DNA of 41,957 nucleotides, taken from NCBI GenBank assembly GCA_903861715.1, contig CAIOVI010000011.1, forward strand, positions 1 through 41,957, given 5' to 3'. Position numbers and translations under genes: made by a program. The number at the start of each line of letters is the position of its first letter. Positions within the stretch are counted from its first letter, which is position 1. Below the pieces are notes generated by a model. That model searched no databases and was not told where the DNA came from. It worked only from the letters and a program-made list of their open reading frames with translations. Below, piece after piece: positions 6,809 to 39,613 of the stretch. This DNA comes from an uncultured bacterium (GTDB lineage Bacteria; Patescibacteriota; Minisyncoccia; Moranbacterales; GWC2-37-73).

Positions 6809-8482
6809 ATGAACATGCAAAGGAAAATACAATTAAAGTTTGCCGGGGTGGTTCTTTTGGCCGTAGTGGTGGGGCTCATTTCCTATCCGCAGGCAGTTTC
6901 AAAAATAACCCCGCTTTACAGCGCACTCAATAAACTGAAAATAAATCTCGGGCTTGATTTGCAGGGTGGCATTCATTTGGAATATAAGGCGGATGTTTCA
7001 AAAGTGGAAGCTTCCAAGCGGGCTGACGCTTTGCAAGGCGCCCAAGATGTGATTGAAAAAAGAATCAACGCTTTTGGGGTTGGCGAGCCGTTGGTGCAAA
7101 CCAAAACTCCCAGCACTGGCGATGATTATCGCGTGATTGTGGAAATTCCAGGCGTCAAAGACATTGAACAAGCCAAAAATCAAATCAAAGAAACCCCCTT
7201 GCTCGAATTTCAAGAAGAGGGCACTGATCCTCAAATTCAGCAAATGTTTGATTCGACCAATGCGCAGGCCAAACAAAAAGCGACTGACCTGCTCGAGCAA
7301 ATCAAAAAGGGTGCTAATTTTGAAGAACTGGCCAAGGCCAACAGTCAAGATCCTGGCTCGAAAGACAAGGGTGGTGATTTGGGTTTTGTGAAAAAAGGAG
7401 CTTTTGTGCCGGAATTTGATGCCGTTCTTTTTGGCGGAACTCTGAAGCCAGGTGAAATTTATCCTCAGTTGGTTGAATCGCAATTTGGTTGGCACATCAT
7501 CAAGTTTCTTGAATCGCGCGGCGAAGGTGATAATCTTGAAATCCATGGCGAGCATATCTTGCTAGCCAAGCAAAGCGTTGATCAATATCCGCAGTTTAAA
7601 TACAAAGCAACGGGATTGACCGGCAAAAATTTGAAAAGCGCCTCGGTGGTTTTTCAAAGTCAAGGTTTGGGCGAACCGCAAATTTCCTTGCGTTTTGATG
7701 AAGAGGGCACCAAGCTTTTCGCAGATTTGACCAAGAAAAATCTTGGCAAAACCATTGCTATTTTGTTGGACGGAAACATCATCAGCGCTCCAACGGTTCA
7801 ATCAGAAATCACCAATGGGGAAGCGGTTATCACCGGCAAATTCACTTTGCAAGAAGCGAAAACTTTGGCGCAAAATCTCAACACTGGTGCGCTGCCAGTG
7901 CCACTGACTTTGGTTTCTCAGCAAAGCATTGAAGCTTCTCTTGGAATGGAGTCGCTCAAGAAAAGCTTGGTTGCTGGGGCAATTGGTTTGGGCGCAGTGA
8001 TTATTTTCATGCTTGTTTTTTATCGCTTTCTTGGGCTGGTAGCGTCCTTGGCGCTGCTCATTTACACGGGTCTGATGATCACGATTTTCAAAATGTTTGG
8101 CATCACTTTGTCGCTCTCTGGGATTGCAGGCTTCATCCTTTCCATCGGCATGGCAGTGGATGCCAACGTGCTGATTTTTGAAAGAACCAAGGAGGAAATC
8201 CGCAATGGCCGAACGGTCATCAATTCCTTGGATGAAGGTTTCAAGCGCGCCTGGACTTCGATCAGAGACGGGAACATTTCTTCACTGCTAACCGCGAGCA
8301 TCCTCTATCTGATGGGCACGGGTTTCGTGAAAGGTTTTGCCGCCACTTTGTTCATTGGAGTGGTGGTCTCAATGTTCACCGCCGTGGTGATCACTCGCAC
8401 CATGCTTAAATTCATCATCAGCGATTGGATTCACGAAAGAACTTGGATGGTAGGAGTAAGGAAGAAAAAGATTTCTGAATAA
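6809..8482 (+). CDS. secD: SecD translocase subunit with inserted parvulin-type PPIase domain
   Basis: SecD works with SecF to pull proteins across the membrane using the proton gradient. The 557-residue product has an N-terminal TM, the D1 box LGLDLQGGIHL, a periplasmic P1 domain, the segment LNTGALPVPL, and the C-terminal TM bundle with GMAVDANVLIFERTKEE. An extra block of roughly 90 residues lies within P1 (about residues 150-240). It reads as a parvulin rotamase: AKANSQDPGSKDKGGDLGF, VPEFDAVLF, GWHIIKFLE. A parvulin-strand-like HILLAK follows this block rather than preceding it. Standard SecD lacks such a domain. The start at 6809 is chosen because a TATAAT overlaps the more upstream ATG (6800). 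secF follows after a repeat element. Confidence 0.95.
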   Translation: MNMQRKIQLKFAGVVLLAVVVGLISYPQAVSKITPLYSALNKLKINLGLDLQGGIHLEYKADVSKVEASKRADALQGAQDVIEKRINAFGVGEPLVQTKTPSTGDDYRVIVEIPGVKDIEQAKNQIKETPLLEFQEEGTDPQIQQMFDSTNAQAKQKATDLLEQIKKGANFEELAKANSQDPGSKDKGGDLGFVKKGAFVPEFDAVLFGGTLKPGEIYPQLVESQFGWHIIKFLESRGEGDNLEIHGEHILLAKQSVDQYPQFKYKATGLTGKNLKSASVVFQSQGLGEPQISLRFDEEGTKLFADLTKKNLGKTIAILLDGNIISAPTVQSEITNGEAVITGKFTLQEAKTLAQNLNTGALPVPLTLVSQQSIEASLGMESLKKSLVAGAIGLGAVIIFMLVFYRFLGLVASLALLIYTGLMITIFKMFGITLSLSGIAGFILSIGMAVDANVLIFERTKEEIRNGRTVINSLDEGFKRAWTSIRDGNISSLLTASILYLMGTGFVKGFAATLFIGVVVSMFTAVVITRTMLKFIISDWIHERTWMVGVRKKKISE

Positions 8483-8557
8483 AAAATATTTTTCTAAAAT
8501 CCTAAATCTAAATGTCTAATGTCTAATAAAATCTAAAATCCAAATGTCAAAAGTATT

Positions 8558-8657
8558 TCTCCTCCCTTTTAAAAGGGAGGTCGGGAGGGATTAGAAAATT
8601 TTTTATTTAAGTTGGTCTTTCGAATTCCCCTCAATCCCCCTTTTCCAAAGAGGGAAG
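8558..8657 (+). repeat. Nested palindromic intergenic element, copy A
   Basis: It begins with a perfect 20-bp palindrome (8561-8580, CCTCCCTTTT and its complement). This is followed by GGGAGGGATT, then the complementary CGAATTCCCCTCAATCCCCC and an AGAGGGAAG end. Copies at 15049-15171 and, inverted, 35272-35395 share the same order of blocks. It lies between secD and secF. Confidence 0.75.
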
Positions 8658-8702
8658 ACAATGTTTTTTCAAATTAAAAATTTCAAATTTCAAATTGCCG
8701 TT

Positions 8703-13915: not shown

Positions 13916-15001
13916 ATGTTAAAAGAAAAAATTGAGAAAATTAAAGAAGCGGCCCTGGTGGCAGTTGAAAACGCCAAAACCGTGGAAGAGGTTTTGCAAT
14001 TGGAAATTCAATTCTTGGGACGCAAAAGTGAGTTCGTGGGAATCTTGAGGCAACTTAAAGACGTTTCGCCTGAAGAAAAAAAAGAAGTTGGGCAATTGGC
14101 CAATGCTGTTAAAGTTGAAATTCAAACGCTGCTAGATCAAAAGAAAAAAAATCTCGCTTCAACTTTTGATGCTGCGGCGGAAAAAATTGACGTCACTGTT
14201 CCAGCTGTCAAATTGCGACGCGGTCATCTCCACCCCTTGACCCAAATTCAAAATGAAATTGAAGACATTTTCACTTCGATGGGTTTTGAAATTGCCGATG
14301 GCCCGGAAGTGGAAGATGAATTCCACAATTTTGACGCTCTTAACATGCCCAAGGATCACCCAGCTCGAGATATGCAAGACACTTTCTGGCTCAGATCGCA
14401 GACTAGTGCAGATAAGACGCAGACTAAGGCTGACAATAGACAGAACGACACAGAGGAAAAGAAAGGCGAACGGATTTTGCTGCGAACACATACTTCAAAT
14501 GTGCAAATTAGATATATGGAAACACATGAGCCGCCTTTTCGCATCATCGCCCCAGGCAGAATCTATCGTAATGAAGCAGGCGATTCAACTCATGAGCACA
14601 CCTTTCATCAATTCGAAGCCTTGGTGGTTGGCGATGATATCAACGTGGGAAATTTCAAATTTGTGGCACAACAATTTTTTTCCAAATTTTTCAAAAAAGA
14701 TATTCAAATTCGCATTCGACCGAGCTTCTTTCCTTTCACGGAACCAAGTTTTGAATTTGACATCAGTTGCACAGTTTGCGGTGGCAAAGGTTGCAGTGCT
14801 TGCAAAAATGCGGGCTGGTTGGAAATTGGTGGCGCTGGCATGGTCAATCAAAATGTTTTTGTGGCGGCTGGCTATCCAAGAAACAAATATCAAGGTTTTG
14901 CCTGGGGATTTGGGGTTGAGCGCCTAGCCATGATGAAATACAAAATCAGCGATATCCGCCTTTTCCACAGCGGAGATTTGAGGTTTATTAAACAATTCTA
15001 A
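13916..15001 (+). CDS. pheS: Phenylalanyl-tRNA synthetase alpha subunit, with repeat-derived insert
   Basis: PheS carries the catalytic core of the alpha2-beta2 enzyme that charges tRNA-Phe. The 361-residue product has an N-terminal coiled coil (1-85), motif 2 FRIIAPGRIYRNEAGDSTHE with HTFHQFE, and motif 3 GFAWGFGVERLAMMKY, so it is a complete class II synthetase. Between DMQDTFWL and LLRTHTS, where homologues have a short link, there is an extra hydrophilic stretch of about 25 residues (161-186). It is encoded by a repeat with two CGCAGACTA copies 21 nt apart. AAGGA lies 8 nt before the ATG. pheT follows. Confidence 0.96.
   Translation: MLKEKIEKIKEAALVAVENAKTVEEVLQLEIQFLGRKSEFVGILRQLKDVSPEEKKEVGQLANAVKVEIQTLLDQKKKNLASTFDAAAEKIDVTVPAVKLRRGHLHPLTQIQNEIEDIFTSMGFEIADGPEVEDEFHNFDALNMPKDHPARDMQDTFWLRSQTSADKTQTKADNRQNDTEEKKGERILLRTHTSNVQIRYMETHEPPFRIIAPGRIYRNEAGDSTHEHTFHQFEALVVGDDINVGNFKFVAQQFFSKFFKKDIQIRIRPSFFPFTEPSFEFDISCTVCGGKGCSACKNAGWLEIGGAGMVNQNVFVAAGYPRNKYQGFAWGFGVERLAMMKYKISDIRLFHSGDLRFIKQF
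14397..14455 (+). repeat. In-frame GCAGACTA-type repeat insert within pheS
   Basis: CGCAGACTA occurs at 14397-14405 and 14418-14426 (period 21 nt), followed by related degenerate units. It encodes a Thr/Asp/Lys/Gln-rich loop absent from the canonical PheS layout. Confidence 0.65.
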
Positions 15002-15048
15002 AACCCTACAAATCTACAAATAGAATACAAATCTACAAATTCGCATTG

Positions 15049-15171
15049 TTCCTCCCTTTGGAAAAGTGGCGAATGCGAGCGAGTGTAGCATTCGCGGGAG
15101 GGATTCGAAAACTTTCTTTTCTGGGTAGGTCTTTCAAATCCCCCTTAATCCCCCTTTTCTAAAGGGGAAAG
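15049..15171 (+). repeat. Nested palindromic intergenic element, copy B
   Basis: Same block order as 8558-8657, with an additional internal palindrome GCGAATGC / GCATTCGC that is also present in the inverted copy at 35272-35395. It fills the pheS-pheT gap, flanked by CTACAAAT simple repeats. Confidence 0.78.
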
Positions 15172-15222
15172 AGAATACATTTGTAGATTTGTAGCAAATT
15201 TGTAAATTTGTGGGAACTATTT

Positions 15223-17688
15223 ATGAAATATTCTTACAACTGGCTCAGGGAAATTTCGGGCACGAAACTATCACCAGAAGATTTGATCCAAGGCATCACG
15301 ATGCATGCTTTGGAAATTGAAGGCGTGGAAAAAGTCGGCAGTGATTTTGAAAATTTTGTGGTGGGCGAGATTTTGGAAATTTCCAAACATCCCAACGCAG
15401 ACAAGCTGCAACTGACTAAAGTCAATGTCGGACCCTCACTCCCAACCTCTCTCCCTGAGGGCGAGAGGGGAGATGGTAAGGATATTATTTTGGACATTGT
15501 TTGTGGCGCGAAAAACATCTCCGTTGGCGATAAAGTGCCTGTTGCTTTAGTAGGAGCAAAATTGCCAGCCAATGGAATGGAAATCAAGGCGGCAGAAATT
15601 CGCGGCGAAAAATCTTTTGGCATGCTTTGCGCCCAAGATGAACTTGGCCTGGGTAGCGATCACGCGGGCATTTTACTATTGGATAAAAATTTGAAAGTTG
15701 GCACGCCGCTCAAAAAAGTTTTGGGTGAAAATGATCAAATTTTGGAAATTAAGGTTTTGCCAGATCGAGCGCACGATGCAGTCAGTCATGTTGGCCTGGC
15801 TCGGGAAGTGGCAGCGCTTACGGGAGACAAAATCGAATATGATTATGATAGTTTAAAACTTGGCAAGAAAAAGACTGTCAGTTTGAAAGTTTCAATCGAA
15901 AATCAGAATTTGAGTAGTCGCTACATTGCAGCTAAATTAGATAACGTTAAAATTGAAAAATCTCCACAGTGGATTGCGCAAAGATTGGAAAAATGTGGGA
16001 TCAGGTCAATCAACAACGTGGTGGATGTGACGAATTATGTGATGCTGGAACTGGGTCAACCGATGCATGCTTTTGATTTTGCGCAAATTTCCAAAGATGG
16101 GACGGCGGAAATAATTGTCAGAAGCGCCAAAGAAAATGAGGAAATCACAGTTCTTGATGGCAGTGTGAAAAAAATGTCAGCGGATGACATCGTGATTGCC
16201 AACAAACAAGGCGTACTAGCCATAGCTGGGGTGATGGGCGGCAAAAATTCTGGAGTAAATAATGATACGACTAGCATCGTGCTTGAAGCAGCAGCCTTCA
16301 ATTCAACAGCCATTCGCAAAACCAAAAATAAATTCGCCTTGCAAACTGATGCAGCGATGCGTTTTGAAAAAGGACTTGATCCAAACCTCGCGGAAAAAGC
16401 CATGGTGCGGGCCATTGAAATTCTGACGCACATCACGGACGCTAAACTTGATGGCCTTGTGGACAAATATCCGAATCCAGTGAAGCCCTGGACCATCAAA
16501 CTCGAGTTGGCTTATGTGAATTCCTTGCTAGGTGAAAATGTGCCAGCCAAGGTTAGCCAGGAAATTCTCAGCTCACTTGGCTTTGAAGGGAAAAAAGTCG
16601 GCAAGGATTTGACAGTGACGGTGCCAACTTTCAGATTGGATGTGCTCACGCAAGAAGATTTGATTGAAGAAATTGGTCGAGTTTATGGCTATGACAAAAT
16701 TGCGCCAACCGCGCAACTTGTTTCCATCAAACCGCCAGTCATCAATGAGCAAAGAACTTTTGTCAGAAAAGTGAAAGATGTCTTGGTTGGGCAAGGATTT
16801 TCCGAAGTCTACAATTATGCTTTTTATAGTCAAAAAGATAGTGAAAATGCTAGATTGCAAAATTTTAAACATCTTGAACTTGAAGCGCCAGGCAATCTTG
16901 AGCAAACAATTTTGCGCGTGAGCTTGATTCCAAACTTGCTCAAAAATGTCAGCGAAAATTTGAAATTCAACAAGGAACTGCACCTTTTTGAAACTGGCAA
17001 AGTTTTTTTGCCGGGCGAAAATGTTTTGCCAACTGAAAAAAATATGCTTTGCGGAGTGGTGGTGTTGGAAAATAAGGCAAGCAAAAAAAATGGCCAAAGC
17101 ACTCTGCAGCAAACTGCTTTTTTTCAAGCGAAAGCATTTGCGGCCGACTTGCTGCTACAATTGGGCATCACTGATCACTATTTTGCAACTTTCGAAGAAG
17201 GCTTTGAACAAATCTCAAAATCATTTTGCCATGAGGGTCGCGCCAGTGAAATCAGAATCACTGGGAGCAACGACGCCGTCGGTTGCTTGGCGGAAATAAA
17301 TCCAACTGTGCTGGCTGATTTTGACATCAATAGTCGCGTGGTCTTTTTTGAATTTGAAATGAAAGGCCTGCAAGCGGTTTCCACGGCTGAGCGAGAGTTC
17401 AAGGCCATTGCGAAATTTCCCAACGTGTTGCGAGATGTTTCAATGGTGGTTTCTGATGGCAGGAGGATTGATGAAATTTTAAGTCTTATTCAAACTGAAG
17501 GAGGGGATTTAATTGTCGACGTTGATTTGTTTGACATCTTTGATTTTGCTGATGGCACTTCCAGTTATGCTTTTCATGTGATATTCAATGCTGAAGATCG
17601 AACACTCACGACTCAAGAAGCAGACAGCGTGATGGAAAAAATCATTTCCAAACTTGAATCGGAGCTTAAAGTTCAGATTAGGAAATAG
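15223..17688 (+). CDS. pheT: Phenylalanyl-tRNA synthetase beta subunit, with repeat-derived insert
   Basis: PheT forms the structural, tRNA-binding and editing part of the PheRS heterotetramer. The 821-residue product has the N-terminal tRNA-binding (EMAP-like) domain (FVVGEILEISKHPNADKLQL), B3/B4 editing and B5 domains (NNVVDVTNYVMLELGQPMHA), the catalytic-like core, and the C-terminal ferredoxin-like anticodon-binding domain. After KVNVG there is an extra 16-residue stretch (71-86, PSLPTSLPEGERGDGK) encoded by a palindromic repeat; homologues continue directly to the DIVCGA strand. The ATG at 15223 is chosen over 15208, which would add a non-homologous leader. Confidence 0.97.
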   Translation: MKYSYNWLREISGTKLSPEDLIQGITMHALEIEGVEKVGSDFENFVVGEILEISKHPNADKLQLTKVNVGPSLPTSLPEGERGDGKDIILDIVCGAKNISVGDKVPVALVGAKLPANGMEIKAAEIRGEKSFGMLCAQDELGLGSDHAGILLLDKNLKVGTPLKKVLGENDQILEIKVLPDRAHDAVSHVGLAREVAALTGDKIEYDYDSLKLGKKKTVSLKVSIENQNLSSRYIAAKLDNVKIEKSPQWIAQRLEKCGIRSINNVVDVTNYVMLELGQPMHAFDFAQISKDGTAEIIVRSAKENEEITVLDGSVKKMSADDIVIANKQGVLAIAGVMGGKNSGVNNDTTSIVLEAAAFNSTAIRKTKNKFALQTDAAMRFEKGLDPNLAEKAMVRAIEILTHITDAKLDGLVDKYPNPVKPWTIKLELAYVNSLLGENVPAKVSQEILSSLGFEGKKVGKDLTVTVPTFRLDVLTQEDLIEEIGRVYGYDKIAPTAQLVSIKPPVINEQRTFVRKVKDVLVGQGFSEVYNYAFYSQKDSENARLQNFKHLELEAPGNLEQTILRVSLIPNLLKNVSENLKFNKELHLFETGKVFLPGENVLPTEKNMLCGVVVLENKASKKNGQSTLQQTAFFQAKAFAADLLLQLGITDHYFATFEEGFEQISKSFCHEGRASEIRITGSNDAVGCLAEINPTVLADFDINSRVVFFEFEMKGLQAVSTAEREFKAIAKFPNVLRDVSMVVSDGRRIDEILSLIQTEGGDLIVDVDLFDIFDFADGTSSYAFHVIFNAEDRTLTTQEADSVMEKIISKLESELKVQIRK
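15433..15480 (+). repeat. In-frame palindromic repeat insert within pheT
   Basis: 48 nt (16 codons) containing CCTCTCTCCC (15446-15455) and GGGCGAGAGG (15459-15468), complementary except one position, around a TGA loop that is out of frame. The type is common as an intergenic palindrome in bacteria. Confidence 0.7.
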
Positions 17689-31204: not shown

Positions 31205-31316
31205 AGATAGAACACACGGCATACAACATATAACAATATACAATACGTAACACCCAACAAAGATACTAGCATTTTGCTCCATGTTCTATGTTCCATGTTA
31301 TGTTCCAAAGACTTTT
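31205..31316. repeat. Simple ACATAACA/GTTCCATG-type repeat tract
   Basis: It is made of variants of ATAGAACAC, CATATAACA and ATGTTCCATG. Similar tracts are at 34455-34490 and 37255-37341, and inside gltX. Its ATGTTCTATG gives a spurious upstream start for recJ. Confidence 0.6.
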
Positions 31317-35173: not shown

Positions 35174-35271
35174 GACTACCGCAAAAGCGGGGGATGGTAT
35201 ATGGTTATTAGAGAAAGATATTAGATTCTAAATTATAGATTCTGGAATTTTTATCAATTCATGAATGCATT

Positions 35272-35395
35272 TCTTCCCCCTTTGGAAAAGGGGGATTGAG
35301 GGGGATTCGAAAGCCCAGCTCAAGCAAGGAAAAATTTTCGAATCCCTCCGCGAATGCTGCACTCGCTCGCATTCGCCACTTTTCTGAAGGGAGGA
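35272..35395 (-). repeat. Nested palindromic intergenic element, copy C (inverted)
   Basis: The reverse complement matches copy B closely, including the GCGAATGC / GCATTCGC inner palindrome and the CCTCAATCCCCC block. It lies upstream of the second glycosyltransferase. Confidence 0.78.
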
Positions 35396-35448
35396 ATGAT
35401 ACTTTTTGTAGATTCGTATTTAATTCGTAGTTTCGCATCGGTAATAAT

Positions 35449-38047: not shown

Positions 38048-39613
38048 ATGACTCAAACAGAAAAAAAAGTCAGGGTTCGTTTTGCGCCTTCACCAACGGG
38101 CTATTTGCACATTGGCGGCTTGCGAACGGCACTTTACAACTATCTTTTCGCCAAAAAAAAGGTGGGAACTTTTGTCCTGCGGGTTGAAGACACCGATCAA
38201 AAAAGATTTGTCGAGGGCGCAGTGGAAAATCTCATCCAAGCACTTGAACAAATGGGCTTGAGTTGGGATGAAGGAGTTTACATCATGGATCATGGAACAT
38301 GTAACATAGAACACGAGAAAAAAAATTCAAAAACTTATGCTGGTATAGTTGAAGTTGGTGAATTTGGACCGTATGTGCAGTCAGAAAGATTGGAGCTTTA
38401 CAAAAAATATGCCGAGCAGTTAGTAAAGGACGGAAAAGCTTACTATTGTTTTTGCGACTGCGAAAGGCTGGAACAGATGCGTGAAAAACAGCAACAAGCA
38501 AAATTGCCACCAATGTATGATCGCTATTGTTTGGATAATTTAACCTCTGCAGAAATAGCCCAAAAATTGGCTGAAAAATGTCCGGCGGTTGTTCGCTTGA
38601 AAGTTCCCAAAGATGAAATTATTGAGTTTGAAGATTTGGTGCGAGGCAAAGTGACTTTTGCCAGCAATACGATTGATGATCAGGTGTTGCTCAAATCTGA
38701 TGGTTTTCCGACTTATCATTTGGCCAATGTGGTGGACGATCATTTGATGGAAATTACTGAGGTGATTCGCGGTGAAGAATGGCTTCCAAGCACACCCAAG
38801 CATATCTTGCTTTATCGCGCTTTTGGTTGGCAAGAGCCACAGTTTGCACATATTCCACTGCTGCTAAACGCTGACAAGTCGAAACTTTCCAAACGCCAAG
38901 GCGACGTGGCAGTTGAAGATTATCTACAGAAAGGATATCTGAAAGAGGCTGTCATTAATTTTGTGGCGATGCTTGGCTGGAATCCAGGGGAGGGAAGTGT
39001 GCAGGAGATTTTTTCCATGGCTGAGCTTATCGAAAAATTTGATTTGAAAAAAGTTCACAAAGCTGGCGCCGTTTTTGATTTGAAAAAACTAGATTGGCTT
39101 AATGCGCAATACATCAAAAAATTATCCGTAGATGAATTACACAACAGTGCTAAGACATTTTTTGAGGCAAAAGAATTTTTTGAAACTTGGAACGTAAAAC
39201 GTGCAGTTTGGAGTGTGGCAGAAAAAGAAGAATACCTCAAAAAAGTTTTAGCTATTGAACAAGACCGACTAGCCAATTTGTCTCAGGTGGGAGATGAAAA
39301 TGAATTTTTCTTTAAGGATATAGCTTATGAAAAAAGTTTACTCGCTTGGAAAGAGATGACCGACCAGCAAGTGAAAGAATCTTTGCAAAAATCTTTACAA
39401 GTGCTTGGTGACACGTCAGAATCGCAATGGACACGTGAATTGCTGGAGCAAAACCTACTAGCAGCCGCTGGTGAAAAACGAGGAGAGTTGCTTTGGCCCC
39501 TGCGAGCATGCTTGACTGGCGTGCAAAAATCTCCGTCGCCATTTGATTGCGCTTGGGTGCTCGGAAAAGAAGAAACGCTCAAGCGCTTACAAAGAGCCTT
39601 ACAATTATTTTGA
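38048..39613 (+). CDS. gltX: Glutamyl-tRNA synthetase, with repeat-derived insert
   Basis: Class I synthetase charging tRNA-Glu (and possibly tRNA-Gln). The 521-residue product has RFAPSPTGYLHIGGLRTALY (HIGH-type), VLRVEDTDQKR, and KLSKRQGDVAVEDY (KMSKS-type), and a C-terminal anticodon-binding domain. After LSWDEGV and before FGPYVQSERLELY there is an extra stretch of about 25 residues (78-102, starting YIMDHGTCNIEHEKK), partly encoded by a GGAACATGTAACATAGAACA repeat. The gene starts 1 nt after the WecG-like stop. Confidence 0.96.
   Translation: MTQTEKKVRVRFAPSPTGYLHIGGLRTALYNYLFAKKKVGTFVLRVEDTDQKRFVEGAVENLIQALEQMGLSWDEGVYIMDHGTCNIEHEKKNSKTYAGIVEVGEFGPYVQSERLELYKKYAEQLVKDGKAYYCFCDCERLEQMREKQQQAKLPPMYDRYCLDNLTSAEIAQKLAEKCPAVVRLKVPKDEIIEFEDLVRGKVTFASNTIDDQVLLKSDGFPTYHLANVVDDHLMEITEVIRGEEWLPSTPKHILLYRAFGWQEPQFAHIPLLLNADKSKLSKRQGDVAVEDYLQKGYLKEAVINFVAMLGWNPGEGSVQEIFSMAELIEKFDLKKVHKAGAVFDLKKLDWLNAQYIKKLSVDELHNSAKTFFEAKEFFETWNVKRAVWSVAEKEEYLKKVLAIEQDRLANLSQVGDENEFFFKDIAYEKSLLAWKEMTDQQVKESLQKSLQVLGDTSESQWTRELLEQNLLAAAGEKRGELLWPLRACLTGVQKSPSPFDCAWVLGKEETLKRLQRALQLF
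38291..38314 (+). repeat. Intergenic-type repeat inside gltX
   Basis: GGAACATGTAACATAGAACA with flanks matches the style and words of the intergenic tracts at 31205, 34455 and 37262, but here is read in frame. Confidence 0.7.

What the first reader, a model, noticed from the sequence alone, without database searches (positions are those of the whole stretch)
15433..15480. In-frame palindromic repeat insertion in pheT
A 48-nt block with a near-perfect CCTCTCTCCC / GGGCGAGAGG hairpin encodes 16 extra residues between KVNVG and the DIVCGA strand, which are adjacent in homologues. The sequence type is usually an intergenic palindrome. Its length is divisible by three and the TGA in its loop is kept out of frame.
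Basis: partly seen in the sequence, partly recalled or inferred. Interest (0 to 1): 0.68.

Follow-up and report, generated by a model that had tools for sequence, protein, structure and literature searches.

The report
Mobile palindrome inserted inside tRNA-synthetase gene
A short repeated DNA hairpin that normally sits between genes has been inserted, without breaking the reading frame, into an essential enzyme gene of what appears to be a candidate-phyla-radiation bacterium, and the same protein loops are hit again and again in its relatives, so these repeats keep adding short peptides to conserved enzymes.

Summary
Window 15433-15480 adds 16 in-frame residues to PheT between two beta-strands that are adjacent in E. 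coli PheT, in 70 of 71 other bacterial PheTs and in most close relatives. It belongs to a dispersed ~36-nt palindrome family ([AC]CCTCAcCCCAaCCCTCTCCC-loop-GGGAGAGGG) with 11 copies in this 1.28-Mb genome. Four copies are in frame inside genes (pheT, gatB, uvrA, a glycosyltransferase); the other copies inspected lie in no long reading frame. In the genome and its relatives, 42 of 94 copies lie in frame inside long ORFs (UvrC, MiaB, PolI, DnaG, LepA and others), using both orientations and all frames; the one copy that looked frame-breaking is intergenic. Ten genomes of seven genera carry inserts at this PheT loop, with at least three unrelated sequences. In 13 other genes, sibling species have empty loops or loops filled by unrelated sequence. 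This resembles Rickettsia palindromic elements and the intragenic REPs of Di Nocera 2013, but differs in element family, host group, frame usage and repeated refilling of the same loops. Translation and neutrality are inferred; the mobilising enzyme is not identified. A second window gene, gltX, carries another in-frame dispersed repeat.

The parts
15223..17688 (+). pheT, phenylalanine--tRNA ligase beta subunit, 821 aa, intact
   Evidence: NCBIfam TIGR00472 738 bits over the full length; PheT structure 3pco E=2.6e-127
15433..15480 (+). 48-nt in-frame insertion = 16 extra residues PSLPTSLPEGERGDGK (71-86)
   Evidence: four of the five same-genus genomes lack it
15432..15469 (+). copy of the dispersed palindromic element (model R1), head CCCTCACTCCC followed by the hairpin
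   Evidence: 49 bits, E=3.9e-9
15446..15455 (+). left arm of the hairpin CCTCTCTCCC
15459..15468 (+). right arm of the hairpin GGGCGAGAGG
38048..39613 (+). gltX, glutamate--tRNA ligase, also carrying an in-frame dispersed repeat (second instance in the window)
   Evidence: NCBIfam TIGR00464 536 bits; ~22 residues (79-100) absent from Borrelia GltX 4gri
38284..38313 (+). in-frame copy of another dispersed repeat family (CATGGATCATGGAACATGTAACATAGAACA) inside gltX
   Evidence: repeat family D2/I7 with copies at 31206, 31237, 34453, 37257 and 37315; translation

Best explanation
The block is a copy of a dispersed REP/MITE-like palindromic element that was inserted into pheT and is kept as coding sequence. 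The element is about 36 nt and its consensus is open in five of six frames. It landed in the loop between two beta-strands of the tRNA-binding (OB-fold) domain of PheT, in a length and phase that keep the frame. It therefore adds a hydrophilic 16-residue loop (PSLPTSLPEGERGDGK) without destroying the enzyme. Copies that break frames or fall in protein cores are purged, so copies survive between genes and in permissive surface loops, and the same loops are hit repeatedly. Shown here: family membership and multicopy state; in-frame position; empty or differently filled sites in relatives; frame conservation across many genes; use of both orientations and all frames. Inferred: that the insert is translated, that it is near-neutral, and that the element moves or moved as DNA. 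The mobilising machinery is not identified.
For: Eleven copies in the genome, of which the pheT, gatB, uvrA and glycosyltransferase copies are in frame and others intergenic. Of 94 placed copies in the genome and relatives, 42 have at least 60 codons open on both sides in one continuous frame and one does not; that one lies between two genes. In other orders the count is 9 against 0. All frame/orientation classes are used: same strand 12/9/10, antisense 1/4/6. Host genes are confirmed by NCBIfam: IleS, ValS, HypD, MiaB, PEP synthase, MutM, LepA, PolI, DnaG, CCA, UvrC, UvrB, Tgt, RsmA, TsaE, PrmC. Ortholog alignments of 13 genes show empty loops in some siblings and unrelated inserts in others. 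The same loop is hit in opposite orientation (MiaB G130 against G110) and in different frames (UvrA G000/G005 against G109; PolI G053/G110 against G109). The AlphaFold model puts residues 69-88 as a low-confidence, mostly coil loop between strands 59-68 and 89-94.
Against: All eight CCTCA-type inserts at the pheT site (five genera, three families) share one orientation and one frame, which is not what independent random insertions would give. The G000 and G005 inserts are 92% identical although the genes are 77% identical. No target motif or target-site duplication was found. RAYT-sized transposase genes are not flanked by the element (0 hits around 20 genes). The focal genome has only one Y1 transposase, of IS200 type, without flanking copies. 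No expression data exist.
Confidence: 0.87

Rival explanations
1. Single ancestral insertion at the pheT site. The element entered pheT once in an ancestor of the order and was lost precisely in most descendants, or moved between species by recombination, so the pheT site itself is not a repeated target.
For: Same site, orientation and frame in all eight CCTCA-type inserts. G000 and G005 share private features (extra CT, same T.C mismatch) and 92% identity in the insert.
Against: The pheT tree groups G005 with empty G001/G002 (support 1.0) and leaves G000 beside empty G004, so several precise losses are needed. G100 and G021 have unrelated inserts there. Other loops show mixed frames and orientations.
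Confidence: 0.3
2. The insert is selected: the peptide or RNA hairpin has a function, for example regulating pheT or modifying tRNA binding.
For: It lies in the tRNA-binding domain, and the insert is more conserved between G000 and G005 than the rest of the gene (14/16 against 475/820 third positions).
Against: It is absent from the nearest sister species, other genomes carry unrelated sequences at the same place, and the family uses every frame. The RNA fold is not unusually stable (z = -1.1).
Confidence: 0.07
3. The hairpin is not translated but bypassed or spliced out, as for mitochondrial byps elements or phage T4 gene 60.
For: Short hairpins in conserved genes; no protein data are available.
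Against: Bypassing would not need frame conservation, yet 42 copies keep frame and no copy shown to be inside a gene breaks it.
Confidence: 0.03
4. Assembly or binning artefact.
For: The genomes are draft assemblies and the elements are repeats.
Against: Present in many separately assembled genomes and frame-preserving in genes; the focal genome is listed as 100% complete with 0.28% contamination.
Confidence: 0.02

Closest known systems
Rickettsia palindromic elements (RPE; Ogata 2000, 2002; described in PMC2229807 and PMC10969869)
   Same: Dispersed palindromes found between genes and in frame inside conserved housekeeping genes; the protein is translated and active where tested (Gmk, as cited in PMC2229807)
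   Different: RPEs are given as 105-150 bp, encode a conserved peptide and occur in Rickettsia; here the element is about 36 nt, uses all frames in both orientations, and occurs in an unrelated group
Intragenic GTAG/CGTC REPs (PMC3733652, 2013)
   Same: Short (20-40 bp) palindromes inside ORFs, notably uvrA, uvrB, UvrD/Rep helicase, PolI and tRNA synthetases; one case (recB in two Xanthomonas species) at about the same site
   Different: No GTAG or CGTC tag; no RAYT next to the element; a different host group; the same loops are refilled by unrelated sequences in sibling species
Small intragenic MITEs such as ERIC/RU-1 and Neisseria Correia/NEMIS (PMC2229807)
   Same: Mobile repeats with open frames fused into genes
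   Different: Longer, with terminal inverted repeats and target-site duplication, which were not found here
Coding palindromes of Nematomorpha mitochondria (PMC6649704)
   Same: Inverted repeats embedded in coding sequence
   Different: There both arms encode conserved amino acids and the repeats are not dispersed copies of one element

Membership tests
Rickettsia palindromic elements (RPE) | Dispersed palindromic repeat with intergenic and in-frame intragenic copies | tested here: met
Rickettsia palindromic elements (RPE) | Element length about 105-150 bp | tested here: not met
   36-position model, 48-nt insert
Rickettsia palindromic elements (RPE) | Element family encodes a conserved peptide (one preferred frame) | tested here: not met
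   All same-strand and antisense frames used: 12/9/10 and 1/4/6
Rickettsia palindromic elements (RPE) | Protein with the insert is expressed and active | not testable with these tools
   no expression data
REP elements mobilised by RAYTs (GTAG/CGTC families) | 20-40 bp imperfect palindrome in many copies | tested here: met
REP elements mobilised by RAYTs (GTAG/CGTC families) | GTAG or CGTC tag at one end | tested here: not met
   Consensus ACCCTCACCCCAACCCTCTCCCAGAGGGAGAGGGGG
REP elements mobilised by RAYTs (GTAG/CGTC families) | Cognate RAYT gene flanked by the element | tested here: not met
   No hit around 20 RAYT-sized Y1 genes; among 8 better-scoring Y1 genes only one IS200-type gene, in G053, is flanked
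MITE | Terminal inverted repeats and target-site duplication | tested here: inconclusive
   The palindrome occupies one side of the element; no duplication or target motif seen
phenylalanine--tRNA ligase beta subunit | Full-length match to the curated family model | tested here: met
   TIGR00472 738 bits against cut-off 403

The most novel reading that the evidence does not exclude
In this lineage a repeat-type-agnostic process, not one transposase, keeps filling, replacing and emptying the same permissive surface loops of core proteins with whatever short repeat is abundant in the genome, so that loop sequence turns over between sibling species while the fold stays intact.
Probability: 0.3. 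Interest if true: 0.78.

Novelty: new variant of a known kind. Interest (0 to 1): 0.6.

Why it matters
In-frame palindromes are mainly known from Rickettsia and a limited set of REP-rich bacteria. Finding them in essential enzymes of small-genome bacteria, recurrently in the same loops and alongside unrelated inserts, suggests a general source of new peptide segments in conserved proteins. It gives natural replicates (filled, empty and differently filled sites in siblings) with which to ask how much insertion a core enzyme tolerates and what moves these repeats. It also explains odd low-complexity insertions in proteins from these genomes and warns against reading them as conserved domains.

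Tried and rejected
(1) A search for near-identical copies of this exact variant in the genome found only 17-nt matches, so the family had to be found with a covariance model built from inserts and other copies. (2) RAYT as the mover: Y1 transposase domains occur in 16 of 18 genomes, but the element is not next to RAYT-sized genes, and the focal genome's only Y1 gene is IS200-like with other hairpins around it; not supported. (3) A target-site motif: no clear preference in 92 flank pairs. (4) An RNA-structure role: fold z-score unremarkable and no Rfam family in the window. (5) Pattern hits in G003, G022 and G036 are ordinary loops with a second chance match downstream, and G080 has a natural loop only slightly longer than usual. 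(6) Six phylum-wide pattern hits share a DDGG-type loop of their own and do not look like palindromes (only the first 80 bases seen). (7) The CAC-codon version of the pattern found nothing. (8) The genome-contig scan returned mainly distant phyla and did not name the host; those PheTs served as outgroup. (9) Apparent frame-breaking copies: L151 lies after the stop of one gene and before the next; L100 appears only at the loosest threshold, on short open runs; L173 appears only at the 100-codon threshold, next to a run of N, and was not resolved.

Full report
Observation. The block at 15433-15480 is real. In the pheT frame it reads PSLPTSLPEGERGDGK, residues 71-86. Its arms CCTCTCTCCC and GGGCGAGAGG pair at 9 of 10 positions around the loop TGA, which is out of frame. 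Hairpins of this quality are rare in shuffled windows (0-2 per shuffle, 2 places in the window), so the hairpin alone is mildly unusual. The RNA fold in context is not exceptional. The flanking strands KVNVG and DIVCGA are adjacent in solved PheT structures (3pco, 7n8y). In 71 PheTs from other lineages the stretch after HPNAD measures 15-17 residues in 70 cases, against 32 here.

Host. The genome is a 1.28-Mb assembly in 63 contigs, listed as 100% complete. It has no name in the tools. Small genome size and named PheT relatives (Candidatus Uhrbacteria, a Patescibacteria group bacterium and Berkelbacteria, 36-38% identity) suggest the candidate phyla radiation (Patescibacteria); this is an inference.

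The family. A covariance model (R1) was built from six pheT inserts and four other copies. It finds 11 copies in this genome and up to 31 in relatives. In a sample of the phylum, 22 of 239 other genomes have at least one strong copy. The consensus is ACCCTCACCCCAACCCTCTCCC-AGA-GGGAGAGGGGG. The sequences used to build the model match it by construction; the other copies do not have that advantage.

In-gene copies. In the focal genome, copies in pheT, gatB, uvrA and a glycosyltransferase are in frame. The copies inspected on contigs 42, 29, 51, 62 and 36 show no long covering ORF. Over 94 copies placed in the genome and eleven relatives, 42 have at least 60 codons open on each side in one frame through the element and one does not. 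That one lies after the stop codon of one gene and before the next. In 29 copies from other orders the count is 9 to 0. Both orientations and every reading frame are used. NCBIfam names the hosts: isoleucine- and valine-tRNA ligases, HypD, MiaB, PEP synthase, MutM, LepA, DNA polymerase I, DnaG, CCA-adding enzyme, UvrB, UvrC, Tgt, RsmA, TsaE and PrmC (some of these truncated at locus ends score below the curated cut-off).

Recurrent loops. Ten genomes of seven genera in three families carry an insert at the pheT loop. Eight have this family in the same orientation and frame. G100 and G021 have other sequences. In G053 a 21-bp palindrome is nested inside the element. The search pattern requires a CAT codon and a GG, so the count is a lower bound. 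In 13 other genes, orthologs from sibling species show the same loop empty, filled with this family, or filled with peptides that look like translations of other dispersed repeats: VETQNFASLQ, LPAGRQ, NFQIPNFQ, CNMKHETKK, VIASEAKQS, CHAELVSAS. I inferred the repeat families behind these peptides from the peptides and from general knowledge, and did not map each copy. The same loop is hit in opposite orientations (MiaB G130 against G110) and in different frames (UvrA G000/G005 against G109; PolI G053/G110 against G109). That is the best evidence for independent insertion at permissive loops.

The pheT site itself is less clear. The pheT tree places G005 with empty G001 and G002, and leaves G000 beside empty G004. 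The two inserts are 92% identical against 77% for the gene. Single gain with losses, transfer of the segment, or two insertions of one variant are all possible. The shared frame in all eight genomes also leaves an ancestral component open.

Structure. An AlphaFold model from a ten-sequence alignment (mean pLDDT 70, pTM 0.41, so modest) places residues 69-88 as a poorly defined loop between strands 59-68 and 89-94 of the tRNA-binding domain.

Mechanism. The evidence supports insertion of a dispersed element into a length-tolerant loop, with loss of frame-breaking copies by selection. What moves the element is open. Y1 (HUH) transposase domains are present in 16 of 18 genomes. The element is not next to RAYT-sized genes. 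In G053 an IS200-type gene has related hairpins on both sides, which is a lead only. No target motif was seen.

A second case in the window. gltX (38048-39613) carries a copy of another dispersed repeat family at 38284-38313 within a ~22-residue insert that Borrelia GltX lacks. Its state in sibling genomes was not tested.

What is known. RPEs of Rickettsia are the classical case (described in PMC2229807 and PMC10969869; the original papers were not held). [quoted passage not shown] Searches of the held library found no report for Patescibacteria, but most subscription papers are not held. The present elements lack the GTAG/CGTC tag and RAYT association, are far shorter than RPEs, and use all frames. 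The kind is known; the element family, host group and loop turnover appear new.

Noticed in passing
window 38048-39613 (gltX), 38284-38313: A copy of a second dispersed repeat family (CATGGATCATGGAACATGTAACATAGAACA) lies in frame in glutamate--tRNA ligase, as part of a ~22-residue insert absent from Borrelia GltX.
   Followed up: partly
window 13916-15001 (pheS), about 14390-14470: A variable ~25-residue linker in PheS between DTFWL and ILLRTHTS; relative G015 has a palindrome-type peptide (DLPTGQAGKQ) at the same place.
   Followed up: partly
window 8553-8658, 15043-15190, 35267-35396: Three intergenic composite palindromic repeats (TCCCCCTTAATCCCCCTTTT... type), 70-90% alike in direct or inverted orientation, two of them weakly similar to the pheT element.
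   Followed up: no
L162 (G053 contig 13, 34200-38400): One ORF of 626 aa, apparently a membrane protein, carries four antisense copies of the element in frame.
   Followed up: no
L137 (G129 pheT): A second, different in-frame palindrome-like insert (RPTPPSLNARSLSSSTLREGGGQTLK) in another loop of the same pheT.
   Followed up: no
L061-L066 (phylum-wide pheT hits): Six genomes share a loop of another kind (DDGG...) at the same pheT position, suggesting the loop tolerates length change widely.
   Followed up: no
L305 (G053 contig 24, around 7103-7456): An IS200-type Y1 transposase gene with related hairpins on both sides, a possible lead to the mover.
   Followed up: partly
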